Source: Clostridiaceae bacterium (GTDB lineage: Bacteria; Bacillota_A; Clostridia; Clostridiales; Clostridiaceae). Taken from it: a stretch of DNA of 64,000 nucleotides. The stretch spans positions 62,001 through 126,000 of the forward strand of contig JAQSXU010000003.1 in the NCBI GenBank assembly GCA_029256485.1. Reading direction: 5' to 3'. The notes below the pieces were generated by a model that saw only the letters and a list, made by a program, of their open reading frames with translations, had not been told where the DNA came from and made no database searches. Below, piece by piece: positions 17,963 to 37,194 of this stretch. A program made the translations under genes and the position numbers. Every line of letters starts with the position of its first letter. Positions within the stretch are counted from its first letter, which is position 1.

Positions 17963-18367
17963 GTTTCTCCTTTTGATTTAATTTTATTTTCATTTAAAAA
18001 TATTTTTTAACGAAAACCGATAAGAATATCTTATTAATTAAATAACAAATTTATAACTAATAAAGGGTTGCTAATGTTCTAAAATGCTTGTTTTATCTGT
18101 AAAAAAAAATAGACCATTTATGTCTACTTTTTACTTCCAATTTTTAAATAATTTCACATTATCTCTTTAATATAAAACATCCTACTTTTATGTCTATTTT
18201 ATAATTAGTGCTTCAATTTTTTAAATTTTTATTTAATATTGTATTTCAGAATAGATATAGGATTATTGAAATAGAGTCCCTATTATTTACTTGACTATAG
18301 CAATACAGAATTATAAACATAAAAAATAGACTTTTAAAGTCTATTTTAAACTAATAATTAAATTCTA
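17963..18367. other. Intergenic region with terminator-like hairpins
   Basis: No gene is seen in these 405 bases. A hairpin TAGAC/GTCTA (18110-18126) is flanked by an A run and a T run, and the phrase ATGTCTA recurs at about 18191. The 18321-18347 terminator ends the biosynthetic operon. The promoter of the ketoacyl-synthase-like gene should lie near 17980-18060; no box stands out. Confidence 0.5.
18321..18347 (-). terminator. Terminator of the biosynthetic operon
   Basis: AAAATAGACTTT pairs with AAAGTCTATTTT as a near-perfect palindrome 20 bp past the last gene of the operon. Confidence 0.75.
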
Positions 18368-18805
18368 TTATATTAGATTTTTAATATACATAGGTTCATC
18401 ATTTTCATTATACGATAATTTTTTATCTTTACAATAAATATCATGAATATGAACTAAAACAATTGCTTTAGGTATTAAACTTGATTTCCTACTTTGTACC
18501 CATGCTTTACCTTCTTCATAAATTTCATCATTTTCATGGATTGTTACTCTTCCCTTTATCTGGTATGATTTATTGCTTTCAGGATTATAAACTGTAATTG
18601 CAATTTCAGGATTAGTTTCTAAATTTATTCTTGTTTTATAAAATTTATTGTCGGCTATTAGTATAGTTTCATCGTTATAAGGTTTAATAAAAGAAACATA
18701 CACTAAGTTAGGTATTGCTAAGTTATCTTCTATAATAGTGCAAGTTGCAATAGGTATAGGTCTTTGATTTTGTAATACTGAAATTATATCTTCTGTTAAT
18801 TTCAC
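18368..18805 (-). CDS. Pyridoxamine-5'-phosphate-oxidase-like FMN-binding protein
   Basis: A 145-residue split-barrel protein of the PNPOx-like group, expected to bind FMN or a related flavin. The pattern PIATCTIIEDNLAIPNLVYV, then ILIADNKFYKTRINLETNPE followed by IAITVYNP is typical. AGGAGG lies 8 bases before the GTG at 18805; an earlier GTG at 18814 overlaps the Shine-Dalgarno itself and is unlikely. Last gene of the RiPP-type operon, 15 bp after the exporter permease. It could be a redox tailoring enzyme for the product. Confidence 0.8.
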   Translation of the reverse strand: MKLTEDIISVLQNQRPIPIATCTIIEDNLAIPNLVYVSFIKPYNDETILIADNKFYKTRINLETNPEIAITVYNPESNKSYQIKGRVTIHENDEIYEEGKAWVQSRKSSLIPKAIVLVHIHDIYCKDKKLSYNENDEPMYIKNLI

Positions 18806-18820
18806 ATTATTCACCTCCTT

Positions 18821-19633
18821 TTAAAAAAATGTTAGACTTCCAGTTTTCTTTAGATGTTTTTCTGCTTTTTTACATAAAAATCCTGCAATAATAATTATTA
18901 ATACCGAATACGCAAGAGACATAATAATTTCGAACGTTATAGTTTTTAATGCCATATTAGCAATAGTAATTGTTCTTATTGCTTTGATAGAATATGTTAA
19001 TGGAATGAAACAAGATAATGTTTGAATCCAATTTGGTAGAATATTTAATGGAATTTCTACTCCACTTAAAATACTTATTGGTCTTTCCATAATAGATAAT
19101 ATACTATTATTATTTCTCGAAAATAACATAAGTGAATTTGTTAAAGTTCCCCAAGCTATAGAAGGAATTAAAAATAAAGGAATAATGATTATTGTTTTAA
19201 TAAAATTTAAATTTAAGCTATTAGGTATAAAAATAATTATTAAAATTGAGAATATTAAAGACATCCATGAATTTTGTATAATTCCAACAAAAGCATTTCC
19301 AATTAATAATCCTAATCTGTTAGCTGGTGTCAAATACACCAATTCTAATGTTCCCATTATTCTTTCTTTAGAGTATAGCCAGCCAGCTAAAATAACCGAT
19401 TGAAAAAGCATGAATCCAATATATCCAATTAGAAAAAATGAGAAGTAATCAAAAGAAACATTATCTATAACTAAAGTTTGTACATTATCTTTAAATGGCA
19501 GGTATCTTCCATATAACAAACAAAACTCAAGTATGGGAAACAACGTCATCATTATAAACATCTTTTTTGATTTTAATAAAGCTTGATATTGTTTACGTAT
19601 TTCAGTTCGAATTGTATTAAAAAAATTTTTCAT
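18821..19633 (-). CDS. ABC-2 type transporter permease
   Basis: A 270-residue membrane protein with about six hydrophobic segments in the ABC2_membrane order (FIMMTLFPILEFCLLYG, YFSFFLIGYIGFMLFQ, and a last AYSVLIIIIAGFLC). Typical ABC-2 loop phrase NILPNWIQTLSCFIPLTYSI. It overlaps the ATPase gene by one base and is its direct partner. Likely forms the exporter of the operon's product with the ATPase and the second permease at 20625. Confidence 0.9.
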   Translation of the reverse strand: MKNFFNTIRTEIRKQYQALLKSKKMFIMMTLFPILEFCLLYGRYLPFKDNVQTLVIDNVSFDYFSFFLIGYIGFMLFQSVILAGWLYSKERIMGTLELVYLTPANRLGLLIGNAFVGIIQNSWMSLIFSILIIIFIPNSLNLNFIKTIIIIPLFLIPSIAWGTLTNSLMLFSRNNNSILSIMERPISILSGVEIPLNILPNWIQTLSCFIPLTYSIKAIRTITIANMALKTITFEIIMSLAYSVLIIIIAGFLCKKAEKHLKKTGSLTFF

Positions 19634-20616
19634 TATTTATCCTCCAACAATTTTGCTATTGCCTCTTCTAATGTAATAGCAATTGTAGAAAATGATACAA
19701 TTTGTGTATATTTATTTATAATATTAAAAATTTCATTTGTACAATTTTTACTTGTTTCTATTTTAAAATAGTTTCTATTATTTTCACACTCGGATATAAC
19801 ATTAATTGAAATTCCTTTTAAAGATTCTAAAATTATATCTATTACATCAGGTAGTAAAACTGAAGTTTCAATAACATATTTCGTTTTTTCACTATTTATG
19901 GATATAATTATTTCTGAAGGAGTTCCTTCAAAAACAATTAATCCTTTATCTAATACATACACGTAATCGCAAAGTTCTTCAATTTCTGATATGTAATGAG
20001 TAGTTAATAAAATTCCTTTATTTTGTTCTTTAGATAACTCCTTGACTTTAGCTCTAAGAATTTTAGCAATATTTATGTCTAATCCAACTGTTGGTTCATC
20101 CATGAAAATATATGAGGGATTATTTATTAATCCTCTGGCAATTTGCAATCTTTGTTTCATTCCTTTAGAAAATTGTTCGATAGGTATATCTTTTTTTTCA
20201 GATAATCCCACAAAATCTAATAAAGAACTAATTCTTTCTTCTAATTCTTTTGAAGCAATACCATAAAGGCTTCCAAAATACTGAAGGTTTTCTTTTGCAG
20301 TTAATTGCCAATATAGCATTCTATCACCACTTGTAATCATATTTAGTTTTCTTTTAATTACATCTTCATTACTCTCTAATTTTAAACCATCTACATATAT
20401 TTCACCTTCATCTTGTGAAATTAATGTGGAAAGAATTTTTATTATAGTAGTTTTTCCAGCCCCATTTATACCGATTAATCCTGTTATCTGCCCCTCTTTT
20501 ATTTTTAAATTAACTCCATTAACAGCATTTGTTGTTACTATTTTTTTAAAAATACCTTTACTTGATTTAACTTTATATGATTTTTTTAAATTTCTAACTT
20601 CTATCAAGACAGTCAT
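19633..20616 (-). CDS. ABC transporter ATP-binding protein
   Basis: A 327-residue ABC ATPase. Walker A GINGAGKTT (K55), Q-loop in the SGDRMLYWQL region, signature FSKGMKQRLQIARG, Walker B YIFMDEPTVGLD, and the H-loop TTHY. A C-terminal 90-residue extension after the nucleotide-binding domain is common in DrrA/NatA-like exporters. It lies between two permeases, one-base overlap with 18821 and 8 bp after 20625. Powers export of the mature product, possibly also giving self-immunity. Confidence 0.93.
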   Translation of the reverse strand: MTVLIEVRNLKKSYKVKSSKGIFKKIVTTNAVNGVNLKIKEGQITGLIGINGAGKTTIIKILSTLISQDEGEIYVDGLKLESNEDVIKRKLNMITSGDRMLYWQLTAKENLQYFGSLYGIASKELEERISSLLDFVGLSEKKDIPIEQFSKGMKQRLQIARGLINNPSYIFMDEPTVGLDINIAKILRAKVKELSKEQNKGILLTTHYISEIEELCDYVYVLDKGLIVFEGTPSEIIISINSEKTKYVIETSVLLPDVIDIILESLKGISINVISECENNRNYFKIETSKNCTNEIFNIINKYTQIVSFSTIAITLEEAIAKLLEDK

Positions 20617-20624
20617 TCCCTCCT

Positions 20625-21452
20625 TTATAAAAAACTTTCATTTAGTTGTTTTTTTATTATTTTTTTTATTATGAATGATGAAATTATATAATATAAAACG
20701 CTTAATAATGTTAATATTATTACATCCTCTACAAGACTATTAATTGAAGCATTTACAAGAATGCTTGAACGTAAAATCTTAACCGAGTAGGTTATAGGTA
20801 TAAATAATGAAATTTTTTGCACTATGATTGGCAGATATTGTATTGGAAATGTTATCCCACACAATATACTAAGTATAACAGTGAAAATGTTTAAAACATT
20901 TAATGTATCTTTAGCCCAAACCATTATTCCCCATAGTATTACACTCATGCCATAAATTGATATAACAGTTAAACCCATGCCCAATAATAGTGTTGGAATA
21001 TTTAATATTGAAATTTTTAATCCTAATGGTATAGCAAAAATAGCTAATAAGGCGATTTGAAACAAAGCAAATATCATTTGTTCAATAATGTTTGCTAATA
21101 AATATATTTTAGAGCTAAAGTTAGCAATATAAATACTTTCAAGTGTACCCATTCTCATTTCATTAATTAAATTTCTGCTAACAGTTGTTACTGTCGATAT
21201 AGTTAATATATATATCATTGCACCCAATATTGAATATGACATATAATCAGTAGTGTTTACAAACTCCACAAAAGAATTCGATACTTGTCTTTTAAACATA
21301 TATGCGTACATTAAATATGTTATTATAATGGTAAATAAACTACTAATGATTGATTGTATAAAAAATTGAAATGGATATGCCCTTTTTTTTATTAATAAGT
21401 TTTTTTTAATTGTAATTAAAATAATTTTTAAATTATTAATTGTAATCATCAA
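20625..21452 (-). CDS. ABC-2 type transporter permease
   Basis: A 275-residue polytopic protein with six predicted membrane segments; the phrases GTLESIYIAN and PIQYLPIIVQKISLFIPITY are typical of ABC-2 permeases. It overlaps the upstream CPBP gene by 17 bp. Two different permeases with one ATPase suggest a heteromeric exporter. Confidence 0.9.
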   Translation of the reverse strand: MMITINNLKIILITIKKNLLIKKRAYPFQFFIQSIISSLFTIIITYLMYAYMFKRQVSNSFVEFVNTTDYMSYSILGAMIYILTISTVTTVSRNLINEMRMGTLESIYIANFSSKIYLLANIIEQMIFALFQIALLAIFAIPLGLKISILNIPTLLLGMGLTVISIYGMSVILWGIMVWAKDTLNVLNIFTVILSILCGITFPIQYLPIIVQKISLFIPITYSVKILRSSILVNASINSLVEDVIILTLLSVLYYIISSFIIKKIIKKQLNESFL

Positions 21453-22152
21453 ATAATTTAGCCTCCTTAGCTACTTTAGTTCTTTTGTATTGTAAAATTA
21501 TATGTGGTGTATTGAATAATAAATGAGCAATAATGCAGGATAATATATTTTTAAATAGTACAAATACAGTTGCACAAATTAATCCTACAATAAAATGTAA
21601 TATATATATTTTAGCATTAAAGTTGTCTTTAGCCCATCTATTTAAATAATGCATATAGACAAACAATATTGTAGATATTAATATGGAATAGTTTGTTAAC
21701 ATGCTTATTTTACCTAATAAGAAAAACCTAAAAAACAATTCTTCTCCTATTACAGAAACTAAAGTTAAATATACTCTGTAGTAAAATTCCTTTTTATCAA
21801 GATAAACTGACGACATTGCATTTTTATTAGATAAATAATATAAAAAGGTTTTTATATTAATTAATATCATTATCAGCCCAAACATAATGCCTATAAAGAA
21901 AACTTTAATATTTACTTCTATAACTTCAGGAGATAACCCTATTATAAATACTGGTATATATAAAGGCAAATAAAATATATGATTCTTAATAATTCTATTT
22001 ATTTTAAAAAATGGTACAAATATTGTAAAAATAATCAGCATTAAATATGCAAGTATTGAATTTACAATAATAGATGGTAACTTTAGTTTAAAAGCTATAA
22101 TTAATATCGAGATTAAAAAAAATAATGAAAACTTTTGTCTTACATTTATCAT
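21436..22152 (-). CDS. CPBP-family intramembrane metalloprotease
   Basis: A 238-residue membrane protein of the CAAX protease/bacteriocin-processing group. The catalytic motif EELFFR (E137, E138, R142) is followed by a HYLNR motif near 169 and by HLLFN near the end; about eight hydrophobic segments. In bacteriocin clusters such proteins act in maturation or immunity. It abuts the PqqD gene (one base apart), so translation is probably coupled. Leader removal from the precursor at 23267 is a reasonable guess, because no other protease is seen in the operon. Confidence 0.88.
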   Translation of the reverse strand: MINVRQKFSLFFLISILIIAFKLKLPSIIVNSILAYLMLIIFTIFVPFFKINRIIKNHIFYLPLYIPVFIIGLSPEVIEVNIKVFFIGIMFGLIMILINIKTFLYYLSNKNAMSSVYLDKKEFYYRVYLTLVSVIGEELFFRFFLLGKISMLTNYSILISTILFVYMHYLNRWAKDNFNAKIYILHFIVGLICATVFVLFKNILSCIIAHLLFNTPHIILQYKRTKVAKEAKLFDDYN

Positions 22153-22401
22153 TTATTTTTCTATTAATGACATTGCGATTAATTGATTTATAAATTTATC
22201 AATATCATTAACTAATATCTTCTTATCAATATCGAAAATCATCCCTAATTTCTCAATAATTTGTTCTTTTGTGTTTACACCATTACATAAATCAAATATT
22301 CTTGCACCAATTTCATTTAATTCAAATAATTCACGTTCATATGTCAAAATATAAAATACTTCTTTATGCTTTATTAATGTAGCTCCAATTCTTTTTTTCA
22401 T
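22153..22401 (-). CDS. PqqD-like peptide-binding protein (RRE)
   Basis: An 82-residue PqqD-family protein: beta-strands (VFYILTYERELFELNEIG) followed by a three-helix part (RIFDLCNGVNTKEQIIEKL). Such RiPP recognition elements bind leader peptides and present them to radical SAM enzymes. AGGAGG lies 7 bases upstream. Its presence supports a ribosomal peptide as the substrate of this operon. Confidence 0.88.
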   Translation of the reverse strand: MKKRIGATLIKHKEVFYILTYERELFELNEIGARIFDLCNGVNTKEQIIEKLGMIFDIDKKILVNDIDKFINQLIAMSLIEK

Positions 22402-22416
22402 ATAAATTCCTCCTTT

Positions 22417-23169
22417 CTAATCAAACATCGATTCTGAAATCATTTCTTCTGCTAAATTTAATATTTCAATAATATACGTTGAAATATTATCTTTATTTAT
22501 GTTGGGGTATATGCAATACTTTATATATCTTTCTAAAAAATCTTGTTTATAACCTCCATTATTTAAAAATATTCTTGTTGCCCATTTTGGTTTTAAATTT
22601 AAATTTCCATTATTAGCATTTAAAACTGATATTGAACTTTGTATAAGATAATTTGCTAATATTATTGCAGATTCATAATCTTGTGCTTTATAAAAGCTTA
22701 AACAATCATGAATATTGGATATTACCTCAGCCTTAAATTCTTTCAAAGCTATATCATATATTATTTTTTTATCTATTAAATTTTTAATATAATTTCCGTA
22801 TTTTTCATTATAAATAATATTGGATGTGATTAATCGTTGTAGTAATTTTAAATTATTAATATCAGATACATAATAATTTGATTTTAACTTTTCCATGAGC
22901 AATAAAATATCACTCTCTGCCCAAAATTCAACATCTAATTCGATATTCTTAATATTTAAAGAAATTTTTTTAGTACCATTATATAAATTATCATACAAAA
23001 TATAAATATCAAAATCCGAATCTTTATTTCCTAAATTATCTATCTGTGAACAATATAAAAATATTGAGTAACTTTTAGTATTTAATTTATCTAAGCTAAT
23101 AGCACTTAATATATCTGAAATGTTTAAATCTATTTCAATTAATCTATTCACAACTTCTTTATTAAGCAT
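22417..23169 (-). CDS. Nucleotidyltransferase-like protein
   Basis: A 250-residue protein. The start is the ATG at 23169 with GGAGG 9 bases upstream; a longer open frame to 23298 covers the hairpin and is not used. Residues 36-85 hold a Pol-beta-type nucleotidyltransferase core: CSQIDNLGNKDSDFDIYIL (D52, D54) and LDVEFW (D79); the usual GS is CS. Residues 130-250 are helical and HEPN-like (YESAIILANYLIQSS). Similar two-part proteins modify antibiotics (kanamycin/lincosamide nucleotidyltransferases). Here it may add a nucleotide to the product, for maturation or self-protection. Confidence 0.75.
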   Translation of the reverse strand: MLNKEVVNRLIEIDLNISDILSAISLDKLNTKSYSIFLYCSQIDNLGNKDSDFDIYILYDNLYNGTKKISLNIKNIELDVEFWAESDILLLMEKLKSNYYVSDINNLKLLQRLITSNIIYNEKYGNYIKNLIDKKIIYDIALKEFKAEVISNIHDCLSFYKAQDYESAIILANYLIQSSISVLNANNGNLNLKPKWATRIFLNNGGYKQDFLERYIKYCIYPNINKDNISTYIIEILNLAEEMISESMFD

Positions 23170-23212
23170 ATTGATTGTTCCTCCTTTGTTTTTGAATTTA
23201 AATATAATAATC

Positions 23213-23250
23213 AATAATTTTGCAAGAGAAACTTCTCTTGCAAAATTATT
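23213..23250 (-). other. Perfect 18-bp inverted repeat between precursor and next gene
   Basis: AATAATTTTGCAAGAGAA (23213-23230) and its exact complement (23233-23250) are separated by 2 bases. On the minus-strand transcript it lies just past the precursor stop. There is no T run, so it more likely stabilises the 3' end of the precursor message or lowers transcription into the downstream genes, giving excess precursor over enzymes. Confidence 0.75.
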
Positions 23251-23266
23251 AAAACTATTCTTTAAT

Positions 23267-23350
23267 TTATGGAGCATGTTCTGCTTTAACTTCAGCAATA
23301 AATTGAGAATCTACTACTTGGTTAATTACTGGTGCGTCATATTTTTTCAC
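23267..23350 (-). CDS. Candidate RiPP precursor peptide (27 residues)
   Basis: A short open frame starting at GTG with AGGAGG 8 bases upstream, the strongest ribosome binding site of the operon. It encodes 27 residues: MKKYDAPVINQVVDSQF, then IAEVKAEHAP. The KKY-x-x-P start resembles leaders of small peptides modified with PqqD-type proteins. There is no Cys, Ser is single, and the tail is AEHAP, so thioether rings or lanthionines are not expected. Position between the kinase-like gene and the PqqD/nucleotidyltransferase genes, and a strong hairpin just after it, fit a precursor gene. Seen: ORF, ribosome binding site, context. Inferred: role as substrate. Confidence 0.75.
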   Translation of the reverse strand: MKKYDAPVINQVVDSQFIAEVKAEHAP

Positions 23351-23387
23351 TATAATCACCTCCTTTCTAAGAAAACGATATTTTTTA

Positions 23388-24659
23388 TTATAAGTACATT
23401 TTAATATATTTATAACTTGAACCAAGATAATTTTTTGAAATTTTTTCTAATTCTTCAGGTTTTAAAGTATCTTTATTTATGGTATTAGAATTAATCTTTA
23501 AGAACTTTGGATAAATTAAATTCAAACAAAGAATATAAAATATATCAGTGTCAAATTTAAATGATTTTCTTATTTCTTTAGGAATATCACTAAGTTTATC
23601 CTCATTCTTTTTCATAATCATAAAATAAGGCATAAAGAATAACCATATCTTTTGCGACATTTCTTCAAGTTCACTATCACTAATTTCTGGCAGATATCCT
23701 TTTAGTAAATAATATAAAACATTGTGCTCTAATAAAATTTCAGGATTGTAAATTTTTATTGCTTTAGGGAAATATATTTTATTAATATATCTATAAATAT
23801 TGCTAACAAAGTCTCTTAATGCAATAATCGCCTTCATTTCGTTTTTAACTTGGTTAAGCTGTCTACTGCTATCTAAGTCGGTTAGAAAAATATGTTTTCT
23901 TTCTCTGTCGTATTGAATATTCTCCCAACCACCAGAATGAATATATAATCCTGCCTCCGATAATCTTCTAACACTATCTCCGAATTGTTGAGCGATAATC
24001 TTTGATATTTCCAACTTAACATTAACATTTCGTATATCACCATTTATGTTTAAACCTTTTTTAATAGCGTCATAATACTCTAATATCTCAACATCAAGAT
24101 AATCATTGTCCCACCCAAGAAACAATAGACGGTGTGGCATATCTTCTGTACTAAAACAAAAAACAGCTCCCATTTGTTTATCGTCAAAGAATAAATCATT
24201 ATAGGATATAACCATAAATGGGATAATGGTTGGAACATTATTTTCAAATAAAATACGTGCATTATCATATTCTCTTACTGCCCTATCATGGCAAATGCCA
24301 CCATAAGGTGCATGGTCTGAATGAATCTTTATTATTTGATTATTTTTGTCAAATCCAAAATGAGGTTCGTCTCTTTTGTATATCTTATTTGTGGGAGGAA
24401 TTGGTTTTTCACTTTTTTCTGAAGCATGTCTACCTTCTGGGTTATATACTCCCACTCCTTTCATTTTTACAGCTTTTAATTTGTGTTTTATGCCATTAAA
24501 TTCAATTTCAATGGGTTCTGGTAACTTGTACCAGGCAGTTCTTCCATTGGTTAAAAAAGTGGGTTCTATTACCCATGAAGCTCTGTCTATAACCTCTCTT
24601 ATAACTTTTTCTGGTACGTTAATTTTTTCGTATTTATGTGTTATTTCATATTTTAACAT
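23388..24659 (-). CDS. Kinase-like (SelO-like?) protein in the biosynthetic operon
   Basis: A 423-residue protein. Residues 65-150 (KAVKMKGVGVYN, then PYGGICHDRAVREYDNARIL followed by FENNVPTI) resemble the KGxG and RSSIREFxxSE-GIPTT region of SelO-type pseudokinases. Around 250 the segment HSGGWENIQYDRERKHIFLTDL plus DSSR has the layout of a kinase catalytic loop and DFG-like metal-binding Asp. The similarity is remote; it could transfer phosphate or AMP. It directly precedes the precursor gene (37 bp), so it may modify the peptide or its neighbours. Second choice: an unrecognised family. Confidence 0.6.
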   Translation of the reverse strand: MLKYEITHKYEKINVPEKVIREVIDRASWVIEPTFLTNGRTAWYKLPEPIEIEFNGIKHKLKAVKMKGVGVYNPEGRHASEKSEKPIPPTNKIYKRDEPHFGFDKNNQIIKIHSDHAPYGGICHDRAVREYDNARILFENNVPTIIPFMVISYNDLFFDDKQMGAVFCFSTEDMPHRLLFLGWDNDYLDVEILEYYDAIKKGLNINGDIRNVNVKLEISKIIAQQFGDSVRRLSEAGLYIHSGGWENIQYDRERKHIFLTDLDSSRQLNQVKNEMKAIIALRDFVSNIYRYINKIYFPKAIKIYNPEILLEHNVLYYLLKGYLPEISDSELEEMSQKIWLFFMPYFMIMKKNEDKLSDIPKEIRKSFKFDTDIFYILCLNLIYPKFLKINSNTINKDTLKPEELEKISKNYLGSSYKYIKMYL

Positions 24660-24673
24660 TTTTTCTCCTTTCT

Positions 24674-26251
24674 TTAAAAAAACATATCATTTGATTTTTT
24701 TATATTTAATTTTTTAAAACTGTTATCTATTTTTTCTTTATTTAAGTTAATGAATCCATCTAATTCTATTATTCTTTTATTAAAAAATTTAGGAAGTTCA
24801 TTTTTATAATTTTTTTGTGATGATATTTCAATTCCTTTCATATATGTATAAAAGGCTAAATCATCTAATTTCTTTCGATTTGATAATATAAAATTATAAT
24901 CATTTGTTTTGTTATTTAATTTTATAAATGCTTTTTCTAACACTCTATAGTTATCCCTTTCGTATGAATATTTATCAAAATATTCTATTAAGTATTTATA
25001 AAATTTACCAACTCTCTTGCTTTTAAACTGATTTTCTTCTGAATATTCGGGAAATTCCTTTATTATTTTATTATAAACTGCTCTTTTATTATCAAATAAT
25101 ATTAATTTTTTCGATAATTTCTTATAAGTTAACCCATATTTTTTAAAGAATTTTCCTGATTCCTTTAGACCTTCCAGTGTGGACAAAGGATTGAAATTGA
25201 TATATCCATATCTAAGTCTATATTCTGCGGTTAAATCAGTTGAATAGCCAACTCTTAAAATAATGTCTAACGCATTCTCTACATCTTCTTTTATATAAGT
25301 TCTGTTATACAATGATAAATCTTTAGAATTAATAGATTCAAGTCCTAAAAAAAATCTTGTCATACCAGCACTTTTTAGTAATGTAAGAATGTCAAAGGAT
25401 ATATATTCAGGTCTGAATTGCATGAAAAATGTAATATTCAATTTTCTTTTTAATACTTCATAATTAAATTCTTTAACTCTCTTTAGTGCATTCTCTTTAT
25501 CAGGTAAAAGAAAGTTGTCATCAACAAACTCAAAATCTGTAATATTATAAGTTTTATTTAAGTACTCAATTTCATTTACTATACTCACTATTGTTCTCAC
25601 TCTATAAACTTCACCCTCTTGGCACTTTAAGTAATCTGGAGTTGAGCAAAATGAACATTTCATATAACAACCTCTACTACCTTGAATTTGTGGAGATATA
25701 AACTTATTACCATAAACTTCACACATCTTTTCATATATTTCTCTTGAAGGGTATGGTAAAGTATCTAAGTCCTTAATTAACATCTGATGCTTATTTTTTA
25801 TAATATTTAACCCATCAATATAAGCAATACCTTCAACTTCTTTCCAATTTTCTTTTTCTTTTAATTTTGTAGCTAAATTATAAAAAGTAACTTCTCCCTC
25901 TCCTATTACTACAGAGTCTGCACCCATGCTACAAAATTTCTTCCAATTAGTTGTAGGTCCATATCCACCTAATGTTATATGTCCTTTAAATCCCATAATT
26001 TTGATTAAATCAATTGTTTGTATTATTTCTTCATGATAATAGTCACAACATGTTATTCCAATTAAAAAATAATTAGCTATCTTGTTTTCTAAATATTGAA
26101 TCATCATGTTTAAATCGAATGAATAAATACGTGGGTCTAATATATCTACATCAAATCCTTTACTCTTTAAGTATGAAGAAATATAGCAAATTCCCAATGG
26201 TTCTGTAATTTTATAGTCTTTGTAAGCAGGATGAATTAATAATATTTTCAT
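24674..26251 (-). CDS. Cobalamin-binding-domain radical SAM enzyme (third)
   Basis: A 525-residue enzyme. Residues 1-135 form a B12-binding Rossmann-like domain (ILLIHPAYKDYKITEPLGIC, HITLGGYGPT, VVIGEGE). The radical SAM core starts at 190 with GCYMKCSFC (C195, C199, C202 ligate the 4Fe-4S cluster). A 180-residue C-terminal extension follows. Class B-like enzymes of this type methylate unactivated carbons or rearrange rings. It overlaps the next rSAM gene by 4 bp (ATGA), so the two are translationally coupled. Confidence 0.92.
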   Translation of the reverse strand: MKILLIHPAYKDYKITEPLGICYISSYLKSKGFDVDILDPRIYSFDLNMMIQYLENKIANYFLIGITCCDYYHEEIIQTIDLIKIMGFKGHITLGGYGPTTNWKKFCSMGADSVVIGEGEVTFYNLATKLKEKENWKEVEGIAYIDGLNIIKNKHQMLIKDLDTLPYPSREIYEKMCEVYGNKFISPQIQGSRGCYMKCSFCSTPDYLKCQEGEVYRVRTIVSIVNEIEYLNKTYNITDFEFVDDNFLLPDKENALKRVKEFNYEVLKRKLNITFFMQFRPEYISFDILTLLKSAGMTRFFLGLESINSKDLSLYNRTYIKEDVENALDIILRVGYSTDLTAEYRLRYGYINFNPLSTLEGLKESGKFFKKYGLTYKKLSKKLILFDNKRAVYNKIIKEFPEYSEENQFKSKRVGKFYKYLIEYFDKYSYERDNYRVLEKAFIKLNNKTNDYNFILSNRKKLDDLAFYTYMKGIEISSQKNYKNELPKFFNKRIIELDGFINLNKEKIDNSFKKLNIKKSNDMFF

Positions 26252-27567
26252 TTCTTATCACCTAAAATAAATTCTTCTTGAAGCTTCAGAGCTACATTAT
26301 ATGGAAACTGTGGTTGGTCAAGTATAGGTGTATAAATAAATTCTTTCTCTATTTTTTCTTTATCAAAATAAAAATTATTATTTTCATTATATTCTTTAAT
26401 CATATGCCCTCTCGAAGAAATATCATCTATCGCTGGTGCTCTAATAATTTTTATAAAATTAACTATATCATTTGGTATTTTTAATCCAGCCCAAGGCTGA
26501 TAAATGTGTAAAAATGATTCGTTAGGTGATAACTCCTTAAGCATTTCAATAGTTTTAAAAGCTGTATCTAATGTTTCATAAGGTATTCCCAACATAGCGT
26601 TTAGTGATAATTTTATATCATACTTCTTAATTAATTTTATAGATTCTACAAATTCTTCGTCTGTTTCCCCTTTAAACAACACTTTATTTCTCATATACTC
26701 CGAGCCACTTTCAAGTCCCATCTTAATTTTTGAGCAACCTGTATCTTTTAACATAAAAGCTATATTTTCATTAAATATATCAGCTCTAACATTGCATGTA
26801 TAAGGTAAACCTATTTGTTTTTTATATAATTCTAAAAATTCTGACACCCAATCAATATCCCTGACTCCTATAAATAGTGGGTCACGTAGATGTATTTTCT
26901 TATAATCATTTTTAGTAATCAATTTATCTAATTCTTTTATCGCTTTGGGAATACTTAGTCTTGGCTTATTATTTAATCCTGTAATTTTTCTCAAATGGTT
27001 AGAACAGCAAAAGGAACACTTAAATTCACATGTATAACTTGTCCAATAATCAAGTTTATTAGCTATTTTAAGTCCTCTTATTTTTGAACAATCAAAAAAT
27101 AATTCATAATCTATCTCATTCAACGCACAAGCATTCCATTTTTTATATTTGCCCCTTTGTCCATTATAATATACAAAATTCGTAGCAGGATGAATATTAT
27201 TTATATACTCTAATATTCCATCTGTACCCTCACCTATACACATAGCGTCTATTCCTATTATTTTTATTGCTTCATCAGGTTCAAGAATAGGAAAAATTCC
27301 ACCTAATAAAATAGGAACACTTGTTATTTGTTTAAAAAATTTACCTAATTTTATTACTTGTTGTTTCGACATACTCGTTGCAGAAATACAAATAAAGTCA
27401 GGCTTATAACATGATATCTCTGTTATTAAATCAGTTTCACTGAAATACATGTATGGATATAACTTCGTTTCATGTCCTGCTTTTTTAAGAGCAGTTGATA
27501 ATACTCCAACACCAGGATGAACTTCTATCTCTAATTTATTGTAAAACGTAATTAGTAAAATTTTCAT
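26248..27567 (-). CDS. Cobalamin-binding-domain radical SAM enzyme (second)
   Basis: A 439-residue enzyme with an N-terminal B12-binding-like domain (ILLITFYNKLEIEVHPGVGV, LGGIFPILEPDEAI, CIGEGTDG) and a radical SAM core with CEFKCSFC (C180, C184, C187), followed by MGLESGSEYM typical of the core strands. Overlaps its neighbours by 1 and 4 bp. Probably modifies the same substrate as the other two radical SAM enzymes. Confidence 0.92.
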   Translation of the reverse strand: MKILLITFYNKLEIEVHPGVGVLSTALKKAGHETKLYPYMYFSETDLITEISCYKPDFICISATSMSKQQVIKLGKFFKQITSVPILLGGIFPILEPDEAIKIIGIDAMCIGEGTDGILEYINNIHPATNFVYYNGQRGKYKKWNACALNEIDYELFFDCSKIRGLKIANKLDYWTSYTCEFKCSFCCSNHLRKITGLNNKPRLSIPKAIKELDKLITKNDYKKIHLRDPLFIGVRDIDWVSEFLELYKKQIGLPYTCNVRADIFNENIAFMLKDTGCSKIKMGLESGSEYMRNKVLFKGETDEEFVESIKLIKKYDIKLSLNAMLGIPYETLDTAFKTIEMLKELSPNESFLHIYQPWAGLKIPNDIVNFIKIIRAPAIDDISSRGHMIKEYNENNNFYFDKEKIEKEFIYTPILDQPQFPYNVALKLQEEFILGDKK

Positions 27568-29504
27568 TATTTAATAATGCCTCCTTCACTTGCATTTAAT
27601 TCACAAATATCACCATCTATAAAATCTATTTTTTGATTGTCTAAAGATATTGCTGGTATATTTCTTTCTCTTAAAATTAATGATAAGTGACATAACATTG
27701 AAGCACTATTAAAAACAAATCCACCAATATATTTTAAAAAGGGTGCTAAGAATAAATATGGTTTATCACAATAAAGAATGATTTTACCCTCTTTAGACCA
27801 TTCATTAAGAGTATTGTCTAAATAAGAATATATTTCTGATTTTTGAAAATCTAAATTATGTTCATTAACAGAGAAAGTATTTGATTTATTTATGTTATCC
27901 AACATTTTTTCATCAATCTTTGGCATATTATATATTTTCCCTTTATATACACCATTTGAAATGGTTTTGTTATTAATAGAATTATGTGAATTATTTAAAA
28001 TAGATATATCTGAAGCATATAATTTTTCATTCCAAATCCACCATTCGACAGTACATTTACCAAACTTGTTTGATATAATCTGGGTTTGTTTGAATATCTT
28101 TTGTAAAATTCCATTATCCATTTTTAATAATTCTTTTTTTTCAGTTTGAAATATATCGGCAGTTTTTTTATCAAACTCCCATATAAACTGCTCAGTAATA
28201 TTGGTATCAATAATTTCTCCATTAATACCTAAATGATAGGTAGTTGGAGTTATTATCCCAGAATTAAGATTTCTTGTTTTCCCATAAAAATATTCTACAA
28301 CCATTTCGCCATCACCTTTAATTGTTGATATAGCTGAAAGAGTGTTAGGAATACTTTCTCTTAAACTTACGCAATATGAATTTTCATCCACATTATCAAT
28401 AAGTTCTTGTATGTTCGATTTTATTTCATTAATATAACAACGTCTGTTGGTATTACTGTTTAGATGATAAATAATTATATCCGAATCAAAATCGAAGAAT
28501 AATTTTTTATACGAAAATTTACTTATAAGTTCTTTATTAAAAATGATAAACTTCCATTTATTATTTTCGATATTTGATTTTTCACAAAAATCAAAAAATT
28601 TAGCTTTCTTTCTCCATGAAGGATATCTACCATGCAAATAACTTAAATAAGGATAATTTTCCTCATTTAATTCTGACATTGAAAATATTTTTATTTCATT
28701 AATTATTGGCTTAGGTTTTATTGAAGTTATTGGTCTATATTGTAAAAAATAAAATCCTTCCTTTCCAACAGTCCACTCCATATCTACAGCAAACCCAACA
28801 GCTTTTTCTAAATTAATGATTTGATTTTTAACATCATAAAGAAAAGGAAATTTTGTATATTCCAATTCATCTATATCTTTGCGTATGTTAAATGTCTCAA
28901 TATTTCCTAAACCATTAACAACATTTTCACATAACCCTTTATTAAATTCCACAATAATTGTAGTATTATCACCTGTTATAGGATTTGAACTAAAAGCTAC
29001 ACCACTATAAATTGGCTCTACCATTTCCTGAAAAACTATACCCATAAAATAACTATTTGGATGAAAATCTTGTTGAGGAAGAAGAAAAATGTTCTTTTTT
29101 TCATATAACGATGCTAATACTTTTCTTGTTTCATTTATTACATTATTTTTTTCAACATTAAGTGATGTAAAAAAAATTCCTGCACCTGATTTAATTGTTC
29201 CATCTTCGGCAGAAGAAGAAGAACGTATTGAAATTGGAAAATTTAAATTTTTAACTGAATTTATAATTTTAAATTCGATTTTTTTTGATATTGGATTATA
29301 TAATATGGCATTCCTAATTAATTCAAATTTTGACTCAATCATTCCACTTCTATGCTCAAGTAATTGAGCTTCTTCTAATATTCCAACATCAGTTAGAAAT
29401 TCATCAAAAAAGCCTTTCCCTAATAACGTAAATTCAGGCACATTATATCCAAGTTTTTTTAATTTAATTAAATTATTTCCTTTATTTCCATAGTAACTTT
29501 GCAT
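27567..29504 (-). CDS. PEP-synthase-like ATP-dependent phosphotransferase
   Basis: A 645-residue protein of the PEP-synthase/PPDK/rifampin-phosphotransferase group. Residues 1-260 form the ATP-grasp pair (KGNNLIKLKKLGYNVPEF, ISIRSSSSAEDG at about 91-102, FYFLQYRPIT). The C-terminal swivelling phosphohistidine domain has GGFVFNSASMLCHLSLIL followed by RERNIPA with the phospho-acceptor His at 606. The PEP/pyruvate-binding TIM barrel of true PEP synthases is missing, as in rifampin phosphotransferase, where the acceptor is an alcohol. The middle part (280-560) is divergent. It likely phosphorylates the product or an intermediate. Confidence 0.88.
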   Translation of the reverse strand: MQSYYGNKGNNLIKLKKLGYNVPEFTLLGKGFFDEFLTDVGILEEAQLLEHRSGMIESKFELIRNAILYNPISKKIEFKIINSVKNLNFPISIRSSSSAEDGTIKSGAGIFFTSLNVEKNNVINETRKVLASLYEKKNIFLLPQQDFHPNSYFMGIVFQEMVEPIYSGVAFSSNPITGDNTTIIVEFNKGLCENVVNGLGNIETFNIRKDIDELEYTKFPFLYDVKNQIINLEKAVGFAVDMEWTVGKEGFYFLQYRPITSIKPKPIINEIKIFSMSELNEENYPYLSYLHGRYPSWRKKAKFFDFCEKSNIENNKWKFIIFNKELISKFSYKKLFFDFDSDIIIYHLNSNTNRRCYINEIKSNIQELIDNVDENSYCVSLRESIPNTLSAISTIKGDGEMVVEYFYGKTRNLNSGIITPTTYHLGINGEIIDTNITEQFIWEFDKKTADIFQTEKKELLKMDNGILQKIFKQTQIISNKFGKCTVEWWIWNEKLYASDISILNNSHNSINNKTISNGVYKGKIYNMPKIDEKMLDNINKSNTFSVNEHNLDFQKSEIYSYLDNTLNEWSKEGKIILYCDKPYLFLAPFLKYIGGFVFNSASMLCHLSLILRERNIPAISLDNQKIDFIDGDICELNASEGGIIK

Positions 29505-30217
29505 TATATATCCTCCTTTCTATTATAATTTCTCTCGCCAAATATGGCAGACCCTATTCTTACCATATTAGCTCCTTCTTCAATTGCTAAACTGAAATCT
29601 TTACTCATTCCCATTGATAAATATTTAAAATCTATATTGTAAGAATTTCCATACTTTGATTGAATTGAATCATATAAGCACTTCGTTTCCCTAAATACTT
29701 TTTTAATTACTTCTTTATCTTCTGTATTAGGTGCAATAGTCATAAGACCTTGAATTCTTATATTTTTGTAATTCTTTATTTTTTCAATCATATTAATTAA
29801 TTCTTCTTTATTAATTCCGAATTTCGTTTCCTCTTGGGATATATTAATTTGAATTAGTATATTACATATTATTTCTCTTTGTTCAGCTTGTTTTTGGATT
29901 TCAGTGGCAAGTTTTATACTATCTACTGTATGAATTAAGGCTACTTTATCAATAATCTTTTTAACTTTATTACATTGTAAATGTCCAATAAAATGCCATT
30001 GAATAGATTTAATATCATAAAGTTCTTTTGTTTTAACAGATAATTCTTGTTCTTTATTTTCCCCAAAATTCGTAACCCCAAATTTATAGGCTTCAAAAAT
30101 TTTATCAGTAGGATATGTTTTACTTACAGCAATGAGTGTTATATCCTCACTATTTCTATTATTTTCTTTAGCAATTTTTCGGATTTTTTCATAAATAAGT
30201 TGAATGTTTTCTTTCAT
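29504..30217 (-). CDS. YggS/PLPBP-family PLP-binding protein
   Basis: A 237-residue TIM-barrel protein of the alanine-racemase N-domain type. The PLP lysine is K33 in ITLIAVSKTYPTDK; further hallmarks are FGENKEQEL, WHFIGHLQCNK, FGINKEE, GLMTIAPN, and LSMGMSKDFSLAIEEGANMV followed by RIGSAIFGER. Family members hold PLP for homeostasis; a copy inside this operon may instead have a role in the pathway, for example amino acid epimerisation or PLP supply. It overlaps the phosphotransferase gene by one base. Confidence 0.93.
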   Translation of the reverse strand: MKENIQLIYEKIRKIAKENNRNSEDITLIAVSKTYPTDKIFEAYKFGVTNFGENKEQELSVKTKELYDIKSIQWHFIGHLQCNKVKKIIDKVALIHTVDSIKLATEIQKQAEQREIICNILIQINISQEETKFGINKEELINMIEKIKNYKNIRIQGLMTIAPNTEDKEVIKKVFRETKCLYDSIQSKYGNSYNIDFKYLSMGMSKDFSLAIEEGANMVRIGSAIFGERNYNRKEDI

Positions 30218-30228
30218 TAGTAACCTCC

Positions 30229-31494
30229 TTATAACTTACAGTTTAACAATACTTTGTAAATATCTATTTCTGCAATTTCTTTATTTATAACCTGTATGCA
30301 CTCTTTTTTATTCCAATCTTCCAAATCGAGATTATCTAATTCTTCAACAGAGTAGCTCGATAATAAATGGAAAGGAGTATATGTTGCTGGTCTAATTATC
30401 ACATTATATTTATTTAGTATATCTATAGTATATTTAACATCATCAATCATTTGGTTTTCTGTACCAAGCATAATAAATCCTTTGTATTTTATTGGATATT
30501 TAGAAAATAATTTCATATTTCTTTCAAATTCACTTACTTTTAATTTCATTCCCATATCTTTATTTTTGTAAAATGTTTCAACTCCAAAACCAATCCCTAC
30601 ACATCCTGCGTCATAACATAATTTGATAATTTCTTCATCCATTGATGAAAAACATGCTGTTCCTTTCCATTTTACATTAATTTTTCTTCTAATCATTTCT
30701 TCACAAAACTCAATAACCCATTGTCTATCTGCTAAAAAATCAGCAGAATGTAATTTGAATAACTTGAAGTTATTCTTATTTGCTTCTAAAAAGTCAATTA
30801 CTTGATTTATTGAACGCCTTCTATCTACTACCCCTTCTCTTTTTAAGCATAAACAATATTTGCATCTTTTAGAACAACCTTTAGAAATATAAATAGAACA
30901 TGCATATATTGAATTTTTAAATTCTTTTGCAAATTTTTTATATTCTTCTATCGGTAATTTATCTATTGGAGGTAACGCCCATTCTTCAGTTAAAAGTCTT
31001 AAACCATTACTATATTTAATAATGGTTTCGCATTCACAAATGCATACTCCTCTGAGACATTCTCTATTGCCACTTAACATATATTCTACATAACTGCTTA
31101 TTGATGCTTCTTGGTCTCCGTCAATGTGAAATGCATCAAAAGGACTTCTTTCAAAGAATTGAGGTATTGTCAATGTTGAATCTCCATATATAAAATTTCG
31201 GCTTTCTGGGCTTAATATTTTCAATATTTTACAGAGTTTTTTTACCATATGCGATTCAGTAATATCAGTATAAAAAACAACTAAATCATATTTTTTCGCA
31301 AATAACCTATAAATACTTCTAATTGTTGCACAAGGAATTGACATATCATATATGTCAACAGTTACATTTTTATTCTCAAACTTATTTATTATATATTGTG
31401 CTGTTTCGCCAAAATCGGTACACCTATCGTGTAAGTTTCTATCATATACTACTCTTGGTATTGATAGAAATAAAATTTTAAAAATTTTATCCAT
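30229..31494 (-). CDS. Radical SAM enzyme (first of the operon)
   Basis: A 421-residue enzyme. Residues 1-190 resemble a B12-binding N-domain (TAQYIINKFENKNVTVDIYD, LVVFYTDITESHMVKKL), though less clearly than in the other two. The cluster motif is GCSKRCKYC (C207, C211, C214). Further Cys-rich stretch at 146-155 (CLRGVCICEC) just before the core might bind another cluster. It precedes the YggS gene by 11 bp. Confidence 0.9.
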   Translation of the reverse strand: MDKIFKILFLSIPRVVYDRNLHDRCTDFGETAQYIINKFENKNVTVDIYDMSIPCATIRSIYRLFAKKYDLVVFYTDITESHMVKKLCKILKILSPESRNFIYGDSTLTIPQFFERSPFDAFHIDGDQEASISSYVEYMLSGNRECLRGVCICECETIIKYSNGLRLLTEEWALPPIDKLPIEEYKKFAKEFKNSIYACSIYISKGCSKRCKYCLCLKREGVVDRRRSINQVIDFLEANKNNFKLFKLHSADFLADRQWVIEFCEEMIRRKINVKWKGTACFSSMDEEIIKLCYDAGCVGIGFGVETFYKNKDMGMKLKVSEFERNMKLFSKYPIKYKGFIMLGTENQMIDDVKYTIDILNKYNVIIRPATYTPFHLLSSYSVEELDNLDLEDWNKKECIQVINKEIAEIDIYKVLLNCKL

Positions 31495-31545
31495 TGTTGT
31501 TTATTTCCTCTCTTTTTTCTATATTTCTAATAAAAAACATATCAA

Positions 31546-32121
31546 TTAAATAATTTTTTTTAATACTCCATTAGCGATATAAAAAAGACTTCCATTTTGA
31601 AATTGATAATCATTAAAATTACTAAATCCAAAACAATAAATTAACTCACGCATAAATCCTCCATGAGTTATTACTAAAATATTGTCATCTTTAATCATTT
31701 CTAATTTATTTATAAATTTTTTTGCTCTGTCTCTCACTAATATTAAAGGTTCGCCATTAAATATTGAATAATCATAATTATTTTTATTGAGTAATTTAAA
31801 TTCTTCATTATAATACAAATCCCTATCTTTCTTTGTTATTCCTTCTAACTTTCCAAAAGAAATTTCCTCCAATAATGAGTCCGTAATTATCCTTATATTT
31901 GAACTCAATTCATTTTTAATTACAATTGAACTTTCTATTGTTCTTTTTAACGGAGAAGTTATTATTAAATTTGGATTATATGATTTTATTTTCGTTGAGG
32001 CTTTTTTACATTGAGATATTCCTTTTTTTGATAATCCATATTGGTCATATTTCCCTTGTATTATTTTTAATTTATTACCTTCACTTTCCCCATGTCTTAA
32101 TAATAATAATTTTTTATTCAC
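31546..32121 (-). CDS. Histidine phosphatase (phosphoglycerate-mutase-like)
   Basis: A 191-residue phosphatase with the phospho-His motif LLLRHGESEGN (H10), SPLKRTIES and the second catalytic His in VITHGGFMREL. First gene of the operon, with AGGAGG upstream of a start at 32121. In a pathway with a phosphotransferase and a kinase-like protein, a phosphatase could remove a protecting phosphate at the end of biosynthesis. Confidence 0.9.
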   Translation of the reverse strand: MNKKLLLLRHGESEGNKLKIIQGKYDQYGLSKKGISQCKKASTKIKSYNPNLIITSPLKRTIESSIVIKNELSSNIRIITDSLLEEISFGKLEGITKKDRDLYYNEEFKLLNKNNYDYSIFNGEPLILVRDRAKKFINKLEMIKDDNILVITHGGFMRELIYCFGFSNFNDYQFQNGSLFYIANGVLKKII

Positions 32122-36060: not shown

Positions 36061-36072
36061 ATTTACAAATTT

Positions 36073-36156
36073 GGAGAGTTCGCCTAAAGGTAGGGAAGCT
36101 GTTTGCTAAACAGTCGGGTGTGAAAGCATCTGGGGGTTCGACTCCCTCACTCTCCG
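36073..36156 (+). tRNA. tRNA-Ser(GCT)
   Basis: Acceptor GGAGAGT/ACTCTCC, discriminator G, anticodon loop TTGCTAA, long class II variable arm. CCA not encoded. Confidence 0.9.
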
Positions 36157-36165
36157 TTTAAATAT

Positions 36166-36240
36166 TGTAGTGTAGCTCAATGGTGGAGCATTCGACTGTT
36201 AATCGAAGGGTTGTAGGTTCAAGTCCTATCACTACAGCCA
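36166..36240 (+). tRNA. tRNA-Asn(GTT)
   Basis: Acceptor TGTAGTG/CACTACA, anticodon loop CTGTTAA, CCA encoded. Confidence 0.92.
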
Positions 36241-36244
36241 ATAT

Positions 36245-36320
36245 GCTGACGTAGCTCAGTCGGTAGAGCAACTGCGTGGTAAGCAGTAGGTCAGGAGTTC
36301 AATTCTCCTCGTTAGCTCCA
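36245..36320 (+). tRNA. tRNA-Thr(GGT)
   Basis: Acceptor GCTGACG/CGTTAGC with one G-T pair, anticodon loop GTGGTAA, CCA encoded. Confidence 0.9.
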
Positions 36321-36380
36321 ATTAAAATTAGATGTATTACTATGGTGTTACTGATAAGATGTTTAATAAAAATAAATTAT

Positions 36381-36452
36381 GGAGTGTTGGTCAAGTGGCT
36401 AAGACATGCAACTTTCTATTGCAGAGCGAGGGTTCAATTCCCTCACACTTCA
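36381..36452 (+). tRNA. tRNA-Glu(TTC)
   Basis: Acceptor GGAGTGT/ACACTTC, anticodon loop CTTTCTA, T arm GGGTTCAATTCCC. CCA not encoded. Confidence 0.88.
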
Positions 36453-36458
36453 TTAAAT

Positions 36459-36532
36459 GTGGGTATAGTTTAGTGGTAAAACGGTGGTCTCCAAAACCAG
36501 AGTCGTAGGTTCGATTCCTGCTACCTGTGCCA
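36459..36532 (+). tRNA. tRNA-Trp(CCA), weak acceptor stem
   Basis: Anticodon loop CTCCAAA, short variable loop, CCA encoded. The outer acceptor pairs (GTG with TGT) are G-T or U-G wobble only, and the top anticodon-stem pair is G-G, so the tRNA looks partly degraded or needs repair. Confidence 0.8.
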
Positions 36533-36535
36533 TAT

Positions 36536-36608: not shown

Positions 36609-36615
36609 TTAATAT

Positions 36616-36688: not shown

Positions 36689-36695
36689 TTAATTT

Positions 36696-36770: not shown

Positions 36771-36796
36771 AATAAAAATTTGAGAGGAATGTTAAT

Positions 36797-37179: not shown

Positions 37180-37194
37180 TTCTTCTCTTTACAT

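What the first reader, a model, noticed from the sequence alone, without database searches (positions are those of the whole stretch)
18368..32121. Undescribed RiPP-type biosynthetic operon with three radical SAM enzymes and a PEP-synthase-like phosphotransferase
Fifteen tightly packed minus-strand genes share overlaps of 1-17 bp and gaps below about 100 bp. Seen: three CX3CX2C radical SAM proteins (two with clear B12-type domains), a PqqD-like RRE, a 27-residue ORF, a CPBP protease, a two-permease ABC exporter, a phosphohistidine-type phosphotransferase, a kinase-like protein, a nucleotidyltransferase, a YggS-like protein, a PNPOx-like protein and a histidine phosphatase. Known: PqqD plus radical SAM plus exporter marks ribosomal peptide clusters. 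Inference: this combination, with two phosphoryl-transfer enzymes, a nucleotidyltransferase and a phosphatase, suggests a new peptide class with carbon methylation or cross-links and a phosphate or nucleotide decoration, possibly a temporarily protected (inactive) form.
Basis: partly seen in the sequence, partly recalled or inferred. Interest (0 to 1): 0.92.

Follow-up and report, generated by a model that had tools for sequence, protein, structure and literature searches.

The report
Peptide-tailoring operon on a bacterial megaplasmid
A large bacterial plasmid carries fifteen packed genes that very probably make and export a tiny chemically modified peptide, using an uncommon mix of three radical enzymes, a divergent kinase-fold enzyme and a phosphate-relay enzyme; neither the product nor the reactions are known yet.

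Summary
In detail: 15 packed minus-strand genes (32121 to 18368) with the named families. The 27-codon ORF (23350-23267) is probably a real precursor gene: it has the strongest Shine-Dalgarno match found in the window, a 19-bp hairpin just downstream, and a YxxPxI motif of the kind bound by PqqD-type leader-recognition proteins; the operon encodes a PqqD. The neighbouring kinase-fold and B12-radical-SAM genes keep company in 6 of 6 closest relatives, judged by shared contig lengths. A distant kinase relative sits beside a different radical SAM/SPASM-type gene and another small ORF. The kinase-fold protein matches no Pfam or NCBIfam family; its model is nearest SelO/YdiU (AMP/UMP transfer) and it lacks the usual catalytic Asp. 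The 'PEP-synthase-like' protein shares the ATP-grasp domain; its acceptor part is not recognised. The operon is cargo in a megaplasmid backbone collinear with Paenibacillus and Brevibacillus plasmids. Best reading: a new RiPP-type cluster; phosphate or nucleotide chemistry is inferred. With lasso-like spacing the core would be VKAEHAP, without Ser, Thr or Tyr, so carboxylate activation or transfer to His/Lys is likelier than Ser/Thr phosphorylation. Precursor conservation could not be tested.

The parts
31546..32121 (-). histidine phosphatase, CobC-like (191 aa)
   Evidence: PF00300 1e-32; TIGR03162 88.8 bits, below its 162.9 cut-off
30229..31494 (-). radical SAM 3 (421 aa), CX3CX2C, no Pfam B12 domain
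   Evidence: PF04055; BchE-type profile over residues 63-403, below cut-off; AprD4 weak
29504..30217 (-). YggS-family PLP protein (237 aa)
   Evidence: TIGR00044 224.6 bits, cut-off 106
27567..29504 (-). ATP-grasp / phosphohistidine-type enzyme (645 aa): ATP-grasp about 1-265, middle part about 270-505 possibly ATP-grasp-like, C-terminal stretch with invariant His606
26248..27567 (-). radical SAM 2 with B12 domain (439 aa)
   Evidence: PF04055 + PF02310
24674..26251 (-). radical SAM 1 with B12 domain (525 aa)
   Evidence: PF04055 + PF02310; best sequence match among solved structures OxsB; shares contig lengths with the kinase-fold protein in 6 of 6 closest relatives
23388..24659 (-). kinase-fold protein (423 aa), SelO-like model
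23267..23350 (-). precursor peptide candidate, GTG start, VKKYDAPVINQVVDSQFIAEVKAEHAP
   Evidence: SD energy -21.9 kcal/mol, best found; YxxPxI motif
23211..23252 (-). 19-bp hairpin just after the precursor ORF
22417..23169 (-). putative nucleotidyltransferase (250 aa)
   Evidence: ATG with SD -12.1; motif read by eye; no family hit
22153..22401 (-). PqqD-type leader-recognition protein (82 aa)
   Evidence: PF05402 2e-12; NCBIfam PqqD and lasso PqqD models below cut-off
21436..22152 (-). CPBP (Rce1-like) membrane protease (238 aa)
   Evidence: PF02517; EExxxR, FxxxH, HxxxN read by eye (sequence; motifs recalled)
20625..21452 (-). ABC exporter permease 1
   Evidence: PF01061
19633..20616 (-). 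ABC exporter ATPase, DrrA-like
   Evidence: PF00005; TIGR01188 231.6 bits, below its 312.45 cut-off
18821..19633 (-). ABC exporter permease 2
   Evidence: PF01061
18368..18814 (-). PNPOx-like flavoprotein (start probably 18805)
   Evidence: PF01243; SD at 18805
18323..18347 (-). 12-bp inverted repeat after the last gene, possible operon end
   Evidence: not in the terminator list

Best explanation
A RiPP-type biosynthetic operon, carried as cargo on a megaplasmid. Supported by sequence: a 27-residue precursor with an exceptional ribosome-binding site and a YxxPxI leader motif, with a PqqD-type leader binder in the same operon. Inferred: PqqD presents the peptide to the B12-radical SAM enzymes, which alter unactivated carbons (methylation or ring/cross-link formation) in a very short C-terminal core, about VKAEHAP. 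The kinase-fold protein and the ATP-grasp/phosphohistidine protein then use ATP to activate or decorate it: transfer of AMP or phosphate to a carboxylate (Glu24 or the C-terminus) or to His25/Lys22, and phosphotransfer through His606. The nucleotidyltransferase and the histidine phosphatase adjust or remove that group. The CPBP protease acts in leader removal or immunity, and the DrrAB-like exporter carries the product out. YggS and PNPOx roles are unknown.
For: Operon order and spacing. The small ORF has SD energy -21.9 kcal/mol; the next best in the operon are the alternative PNPOx start (-18.1) and two genes at -16.2. Among the starts scanned on both strands only it and two starts sharing the PNPOx SD reach -17.5. 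A 19-bp hairpin follows it, and the stretch folds better than all 200 shuffles. YxxPx[ILVM] in the first 20 residues occurs in 14 of 1583 small-ORF starts of the window; the small ORF gives two of the 14 (nested starts) and is the only one between genes of the operon. YxxPxL-type residues were reported as required for recognition by lasso PqqD-type B1 proteins (PMC10368454, passages). Kinase-fold and radical SAM 1 hits share contig lengths in 6 of 6 closest relatives, Paenibacillus wynnii and Abyssisolibacter fermentans among them; both trees have the clades window+19882 and 29155+19275. A distant kinase relative in L001 stands after a radical SAM/SPASM-type protein and a 50-residue ORF. Precedent for kinase plus nucleotidyltransferase in a PqqD-type cluster: pseudomycoidin (PMC8498205, passages).
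Against: Precursor conservation untested: the related contigs could not be read. L001's small ORF was picked by eye, has an ordinary SD (-12.9) and no YxxP; no PqqD is among the five L001 proteins scanned. L001's radical SAM protein scores best against heme-biosynthesis models (AhbD 118 bits, NirJ2 117.5), just ahead of a sactipeptide maturase model (StsB 112), all far below cut-off, so it is not shown to act on a peptide. The second rank of radical SAM 1 relatives (P0055-P0061, 7 proteins) share no contig length with any kinase hit. The PPDK-like protein was found on only 2 of the 6 contigs (which scored only the 7996 candidates sharing most words). The two trees disagree on contig 19502 and on P. 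wynnii with A. fermentans; distances correlate only moderately (r 0.61, 21 pairs). Terminator-like sites as such are common here: 5 found, 2.9 expected. In the YxxPxL paper's own system single alanine changes were still cleaved and only the triple change was impaired. The core boundary is borrowed from lasso peptides. No enzyme's reaction is shown.
Confidence: 0.62

Rival explanations
1. Peptide as scaffold: the 27-mer is a carrier on which a small molecule (a modified amino acid or cofactor) is built and then cut off, as with PQQ, mycofactocin or the pearlins (recalled).
For: Very short putative core without Ser/Thr/Cys; PqqD and radical SAM proteins occur together; many small-molecule-type enzymes (YggS, PNPOx, phosphatase); the exporter is DrrAB-like.
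Against: No LanB/PEARL-like match among the operon proteins. Two of the radical SAM proteins carry B12 domains, unlike the SPASM type of PqqE (SPASM type recalled).
Confidence: 0.2
2. Non-peptide pathway: the enzymes act on a nucleotide, sugar or lipid, and the 27-codon ORF with its hairpin is a leader/attenuator that controls the downstream PqqD, protease and export genes.
For: The small ORF is followed by a terminator-like hairpin; the solved structures nearest the radical SAM proteins include OxsB and AprD4, which act on a nucleotide and an aminoglycoside (substrates recalled); phosphatase and PPDK-like enzyme fit small-molecule chemistry; the L001 radical SAM protein scores best against heme-synthesis models.
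Against: PqqD in the operon; YxxPxI motif; exceptional SD; kinase family next to another small ORF in L001.
Confidence: 0.14
3. A lasso peptide cluster with phosphorylation and nucleotidyltransferase tailoring, like pseudomycoidin.
For: PqqD (B1-like), YxxPxI leader, kinase plus nucleotidyltransferase, ABC exporter.
Against: No transglutaminase-like B2 protease and no asparagine-synthase-like cyclase among the 14 operon proteins scanned; a seven-residue core is too short for a threaded lasso (recalled).
Confidence: 0.03

Closest known systems
Phosphorylated / phosphoglycosylated lasso peptides (paeninodin, pseudomycoidin)
   Same: PqqD-type B1 protein, YxxPxL-type leader, kinase plus nucleotidyltransferase, ABC exporter (PMC8498205, PMC10368454, passages)
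   Different: No B2 protease or asparagine-synthase cyclase in the operon; kinase-fold protein modelled nearest SelO rather than an HPr kinase; three radical SAM enzymes; very short precursor
SelO / YdiU AMPylating or UMPylating kinase-fold enzymes
   Different: No match by sequence to solved SelO structures and no Pfam hit; acidic residue just before Asn247 in only 12 of 38 rows (Glu 8, Asp 4), Ser in 24; ATP orientation unknown
Rifampin phosphotransferase / PEP synthase / PPDK
   Different: Acceptor part not recognised: the best-matched stretches lie within residues 4-270 by sequence and mostly within 1-378 by fold; middle part may be a second, degenerate ATP-grasp
B12-dependent radical SAM enzymes (OxsB, TsrM, CysS, PhpK, BchE class)
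   Same: B12 domain plus CX3CX2C radical SAM core
   Different: All far below the cut-offs of the NCBIfam models they match
Kinase-fold enzymes in lanthipeptide clusters (RosK, RosX)
   Same: Kinase fold used in a RiPP pathway (PMC12291118, passages)
   Different: RosX has lost the kinase residues; here Lys, Asn and Asp are invariant

Membership tests
RiPP biosynthetic gene cluster | small precursor gene beside the modifying enzymes | tested here: met
   27-residue ORF with best SD found, hairpin, YxxPxI; by sequence signals only
RiPP biosynthetic gene cluster | leader recognition element | tested here: met
   PF05402 above gathering score
RiPP biosynthetic gene cluster | precursor conserved in related clusters | not testable with these tools
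   six related contigs known only by protein hits and contig lengths
RiPP biosynthetic gene cluster | modified peptide product | not tested
   needs experiment
Lasso peptide cluster | B2 transglutaminase-like protease | tested here: not met
   no such Pfam match in the 14 operon proteins
Lasso peptide cluster | asparagine-synthase-like cyclase C | tested here: not met
SelO / YdiU family | kinase fold | tested here: met
SelO / YdiU family | SelO sequence family match | tested here: not met
   no Pfam or NCBIfam family at E 0.001
SelO / YdiU family | catalytic Asp shifted next to the metal-binding Asn | tested here: inconclusive
   N-1 position Glu/Asp in 12 of 38, Ser in 24; structural register not checked, exact SelO position recalled
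PEP synthase / rifampin phosphotransferase | ATP-grasp domain | tested here: met
PEP synthase / rifampin phosphotransferase | swivel domain with catalytic His | tested here: inconclusive
   PF00391 21.5 bits, below 23.1 cut-off; His606 invariant in 3 of 3; low pLDDT there
PEP synthase / rifampin phosphotransferase | PEP-binding barrel or rifampin-binding domain | tested here: inconclusive
   no match to those domains reported, but the model is weak (pLDDT 66)
B12-dependent radical SAM, class B | B12 domain and CX3CX2C in one chain | tested here: met
   two of three proteins; third has no Pfam B12 domain
Paenibacillaceae-type megaplasmid | collinear TadABC to ligA backbone | tested here: met
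   14, 13 and 16 of 59 window ORFs matched in L004, L005, L006, all in order but one; 3 of 59 in L007

The most novel reading that the evidence does not exclude
A new RiPP class in which a kinase-fold enzyme nearest SelO transfers AMP (or phosphate) to the carboxylate, His or Lys of a seven-residue, B12-radical-SAM-modified core, and a phosphohistidine enzyme with an unusual, possibly tandem ATP-grasp architecture completes the activation. This would give a nucleotidyl- or phospho-peptide, comparable in idea to microcin C (recalled) but made by a different route, with a SelO-like enzyme acting on a ribosomal peptide, for which my searches showed no precedent.
Probability: 0.2. Interest if true: 0.85.

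Novelty: new variant of a known kind. Interest (0 to 1): 0.62.

Why it matters
It gives a compact, testable system: one 27-residue substrate, one leader binder, and two enzymes with no assigned family or an unrecognised architecture. A kinase-fold family without its usual catalytic Asp that travels with radical SAM enzymes beside small ORFs would add a new kind of ATP-dependent step to ribosomal peptide biosynthesis, and the cluster's place on a megaplasmid shows how such pathways can be carried between species.

Tried and rejected
Searches that found little. One genome-contig scan with the kinase alignment gave a single locus, L001 (11 stretches matched, 1 confirmed). The genome search with the kinase alignment: 1 of 398 genomes of the phylum of G001 and 1 of 385 of its order, in both cases G001 itself; radical SAM 1 alignment at E 1e-80: 0 of 391 of its class (which itself warns that this shows nothing). 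Viral contigs with the kinase, radical SAM 1 and PPDK-like alignments and with a precursor pattern: none; the precursor pattern was in 0 of the 7 loci held. PLSDB plasmids: no match for the kinase protein or the operon DNA; radical SAM 1 (58 records) and PPDK-like (104 records) gave only matches under 60% identity. So the cluster is rare in what could be searched.

Considered and rejected: lasso peptide (no B2 or C in the operon); prodigiosin-ligase or rifampin-phosphotransferase membership for the PPDK-like protein (N-terminal part, far below cut-offs); the long TTG start of the nucleotidyltransferase. A direct profile comparison of the N-terminal and middle parts of the PPDK-like protein gave a collinear but weak match (E 0.083); carbamoyl-phosphate synthetase, which has tandem ATP-grasp domains (recalled), aligns over residues 6-504 with rmsd near 17 A. 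I treat the second ATP-grasp as a suggestion only. PHROGs had nothing for the five operon proteins tried.

Alignment choices: A1 holds 38 of the 41 hits (P0018, P0025, P0031 left out); A2 holds 14 of the 120 listed hits; A3 holds 3 of the 6 hits. The SD scan looked only at starts with GGAG, GAGG or AGGT upstream. Co-location in the six relatives is read from identical longest-contig lengths, not from the contigs.

Change on re-checking: the L001 radical SAM protein turned out to score best against heme-biosynthesis models, not peptide maturases; I lowered confidence in the best explanation from 0.65 to 0.62 and raised the non-peptide rival from 0.12 to 0.14 for that reason.

Literature: six searches listed no paper that I could see to describe this gene combination; in the rows listed, rifampin phosphotransferase (15 of 30), phosphoenolpyruvate synthase (15 of 139) and the two host species names (10 of 236) had zero occurrences. 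Only titles and starts of abstracts of listed rows were seen, and subscription papers are mostly not held. Papers of which passages were seen: PMC13060819 (also abstract), PMC8498205, PMC10368454, PMC5067487, PMC12291118, PMC12409994, PMC12803027. A relation of the kinase-fold protein to CalN, a kinase-derived nitrile-forming enzyme mentioned in PMC13060819, was not tested.
Full report
What is there. On the minus strand from 32121 to 18368 lie fifteen genes with spacings of -17 to +97 bp: histidine phosphatase, radical SAM 3, YggS, a PPDK_N protein, radical SAM 2, radical SAM 1, a 423-residue kinase-like protein, a 27-codon ORF, a putative nucleotidyltransferase, PqqD, a CPBP protease, permease, ATPase, permease and a PNPOx-like flavoprotein. 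Upstream is a 180-bp gap to a Nudix gene, and downstream a 12-bp inverted repeat (18323-18347).

The small ORF. It reads VKKYDAPVINQVVDSQFIAEVKAEHAP from GTG 23350. Its Shine-Dalgarno duplex energy is -21.9 kcal/mol, against -18.1 at the alternative PNPOx start and -16.2 at the next genes. Among starts scanned on both strands of the 64-kb window (those with GGAG, GAGG or AGGT upstream), only it and two starts that share the PNPOx SD reach -17.5. A 19-bp hairpin begins after a 14-base gap behind its stop codon and overlaps the longest inverted repeat of the operon region; the stretch folds better than all of 200 shuffles (z -5.8). Terminator-like sites in general are not rare here (5 found, 2.9 expected). 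YxxPx[ILVM] in the first 20 residues occurs in 14 of 1583 small-ORF starts of the window; two of those 14 are nested starts of this ORF, and it is the only one that lies between genes of the operon. [quoted passage not shown] in the citing paper's own system single alanine changes were still cleaved and only the triple change was impaired (PMC10368454, passages). Laid on the ORF, Tyr4, Pro7 and Ile9 have exactly that spacing and would put the core at residues 21-27, VKAEHAP. That boundary is inference.

Company it keeps. The six closest kinase relatives (contig lengths 19882, 19502, 29155, 19275, 2789729 for P. wynnii, 112358 for A. fermentans) have the same six lengths among the six closest radical SAM 1 relatives. 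PPDK-like relatives appear on 19882 and 19502 only. Trees of the two partners share the clades window+19882 and 29155+19275, but disagree on 19502 and on a P. wynnii with A. fermentans clade (distance correlation 0.61 over 21 pairs). Also against strict pairing, the next seven radical SAM 1 relatives (P0055-P0061) share no contig length with kinase hits. In L001, an uncultured Clostridia contig, a short kinase relative (376 aa) follows a radical SAM/SPASM-type protein, itself preceded by a 50-residue ORF that I picked by eye, with an ordinary SD (-12.9) and no YxxP. That radical SAM protein scores best against heme-synthesis models (AhbD, NirJ2), just ahead of the sactipeptide maturase StsB, all far below cut-off. 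So the family is seen with two kinds of radical SAM enzyme, each time beside a small ORF, but in only two loci.

How it may work. PqqD presents the leader; the B12-radical SAM enzymes change unactivated carbons of the core. VKAEHAP has no Ser, Thr, Tyr or Cys, so the ATP-dependent enzymes more likely activate a carboxylate (Glu24 or the C-terminus) or modify His25 or Lys22 than phosphorylate a hydroxyl group, unless the leader Ser15 or an installed hydroxyl is the target. The nucleotidyltransferase has precedent next to a peptide kinase in pseudomycoidin, where it adds hexose to a phosphoserine (PMC8498205, passages). Histidine phosphatase, CPBP protease and exporter would trim, mature and export. 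All of this paragraph is inference from families and order.

Where it sits. The window is part of a large replicon of megaplasmid type. In the seven best plasmid records its CpaF-type ATPase (62389-63993) finds relatives 58.6-68.9% identical, in Paenibacillus, Brevibacillus, Geobacillus, Aneurinibacillus and Jeotgalibacillus, and the window's kinase protein is listed on a contig of 534,699 bases. Of 59 window ORFs, 14, 13 and 16 match L004, L005 and L006, in the same order except one HD-domain hit in L006, and 3 match L007; 0 of the 14 operon proteins tested match any of the four stretches. Between the YfbR-like gene and the gene before lepB lie 24.8 kb in the window but about 1.3 kb in L004 and 0.8 kb in L006; L005 and L007 gave no YfbR match. 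The operon is thus cargo in a conserved backbone; only 32-42 kb of each plasmid was compared gene by gene.

Verdict. A real, rare RiPP-type operon; new variant of a known kind. The phosphate and nucleotide chemistry is open, and conservation of the precursor is the first thing to test.

Noticed in passing
36072-38522 and 42391-43838: 35 tRNA genes in two arrays, including unusual ones such as tRNA-Leu(aag); such arrays are reported on giant mycobacterial plasmids (PMC12803027, passages).
   Followed up: partly
46649-47422: tRNA-His guanylyltransferase (Thg1-like; PHROG 4717, E 9e-96) near the tRNA arrays.
   Followed up: partly
53609-55759: Kinase/phosphatase/RNA ligase fusion (AAA_33, Metallophos, RNA_lig_T4_1) like those of Bacillus and Staphylococcus phages, an RNA-repair enzyme that could serve the tRNA arrays.
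   Followed up: partly
16961-17962: Ketoacyl synthase III-like gene, same strand, just beyond the operon's terminal inverted repeat; no related DNA in the plasmid collection.
   Followed up: partly
11190-12281 and 13070-14122: Two paralogous GmrSD_N (DUF262) proteins, each beside a small minus-strand gene (10520-11071, 12306-12953; alike by eye), looking like a duplicated two-gene unit.
   Followed up: no
32781-34076: YfbR-like 5'-deoxynucleotidase with two HD halves (two PF12917 stretches); the L004 relative is annotated as a 213-residue single unit.
   Followed up: no
L001 109-864 (-): CbiR-like cobamide-remodelling protein below cut-off about 3 kb from the distant kinase-fold relative.
   Followed up: no
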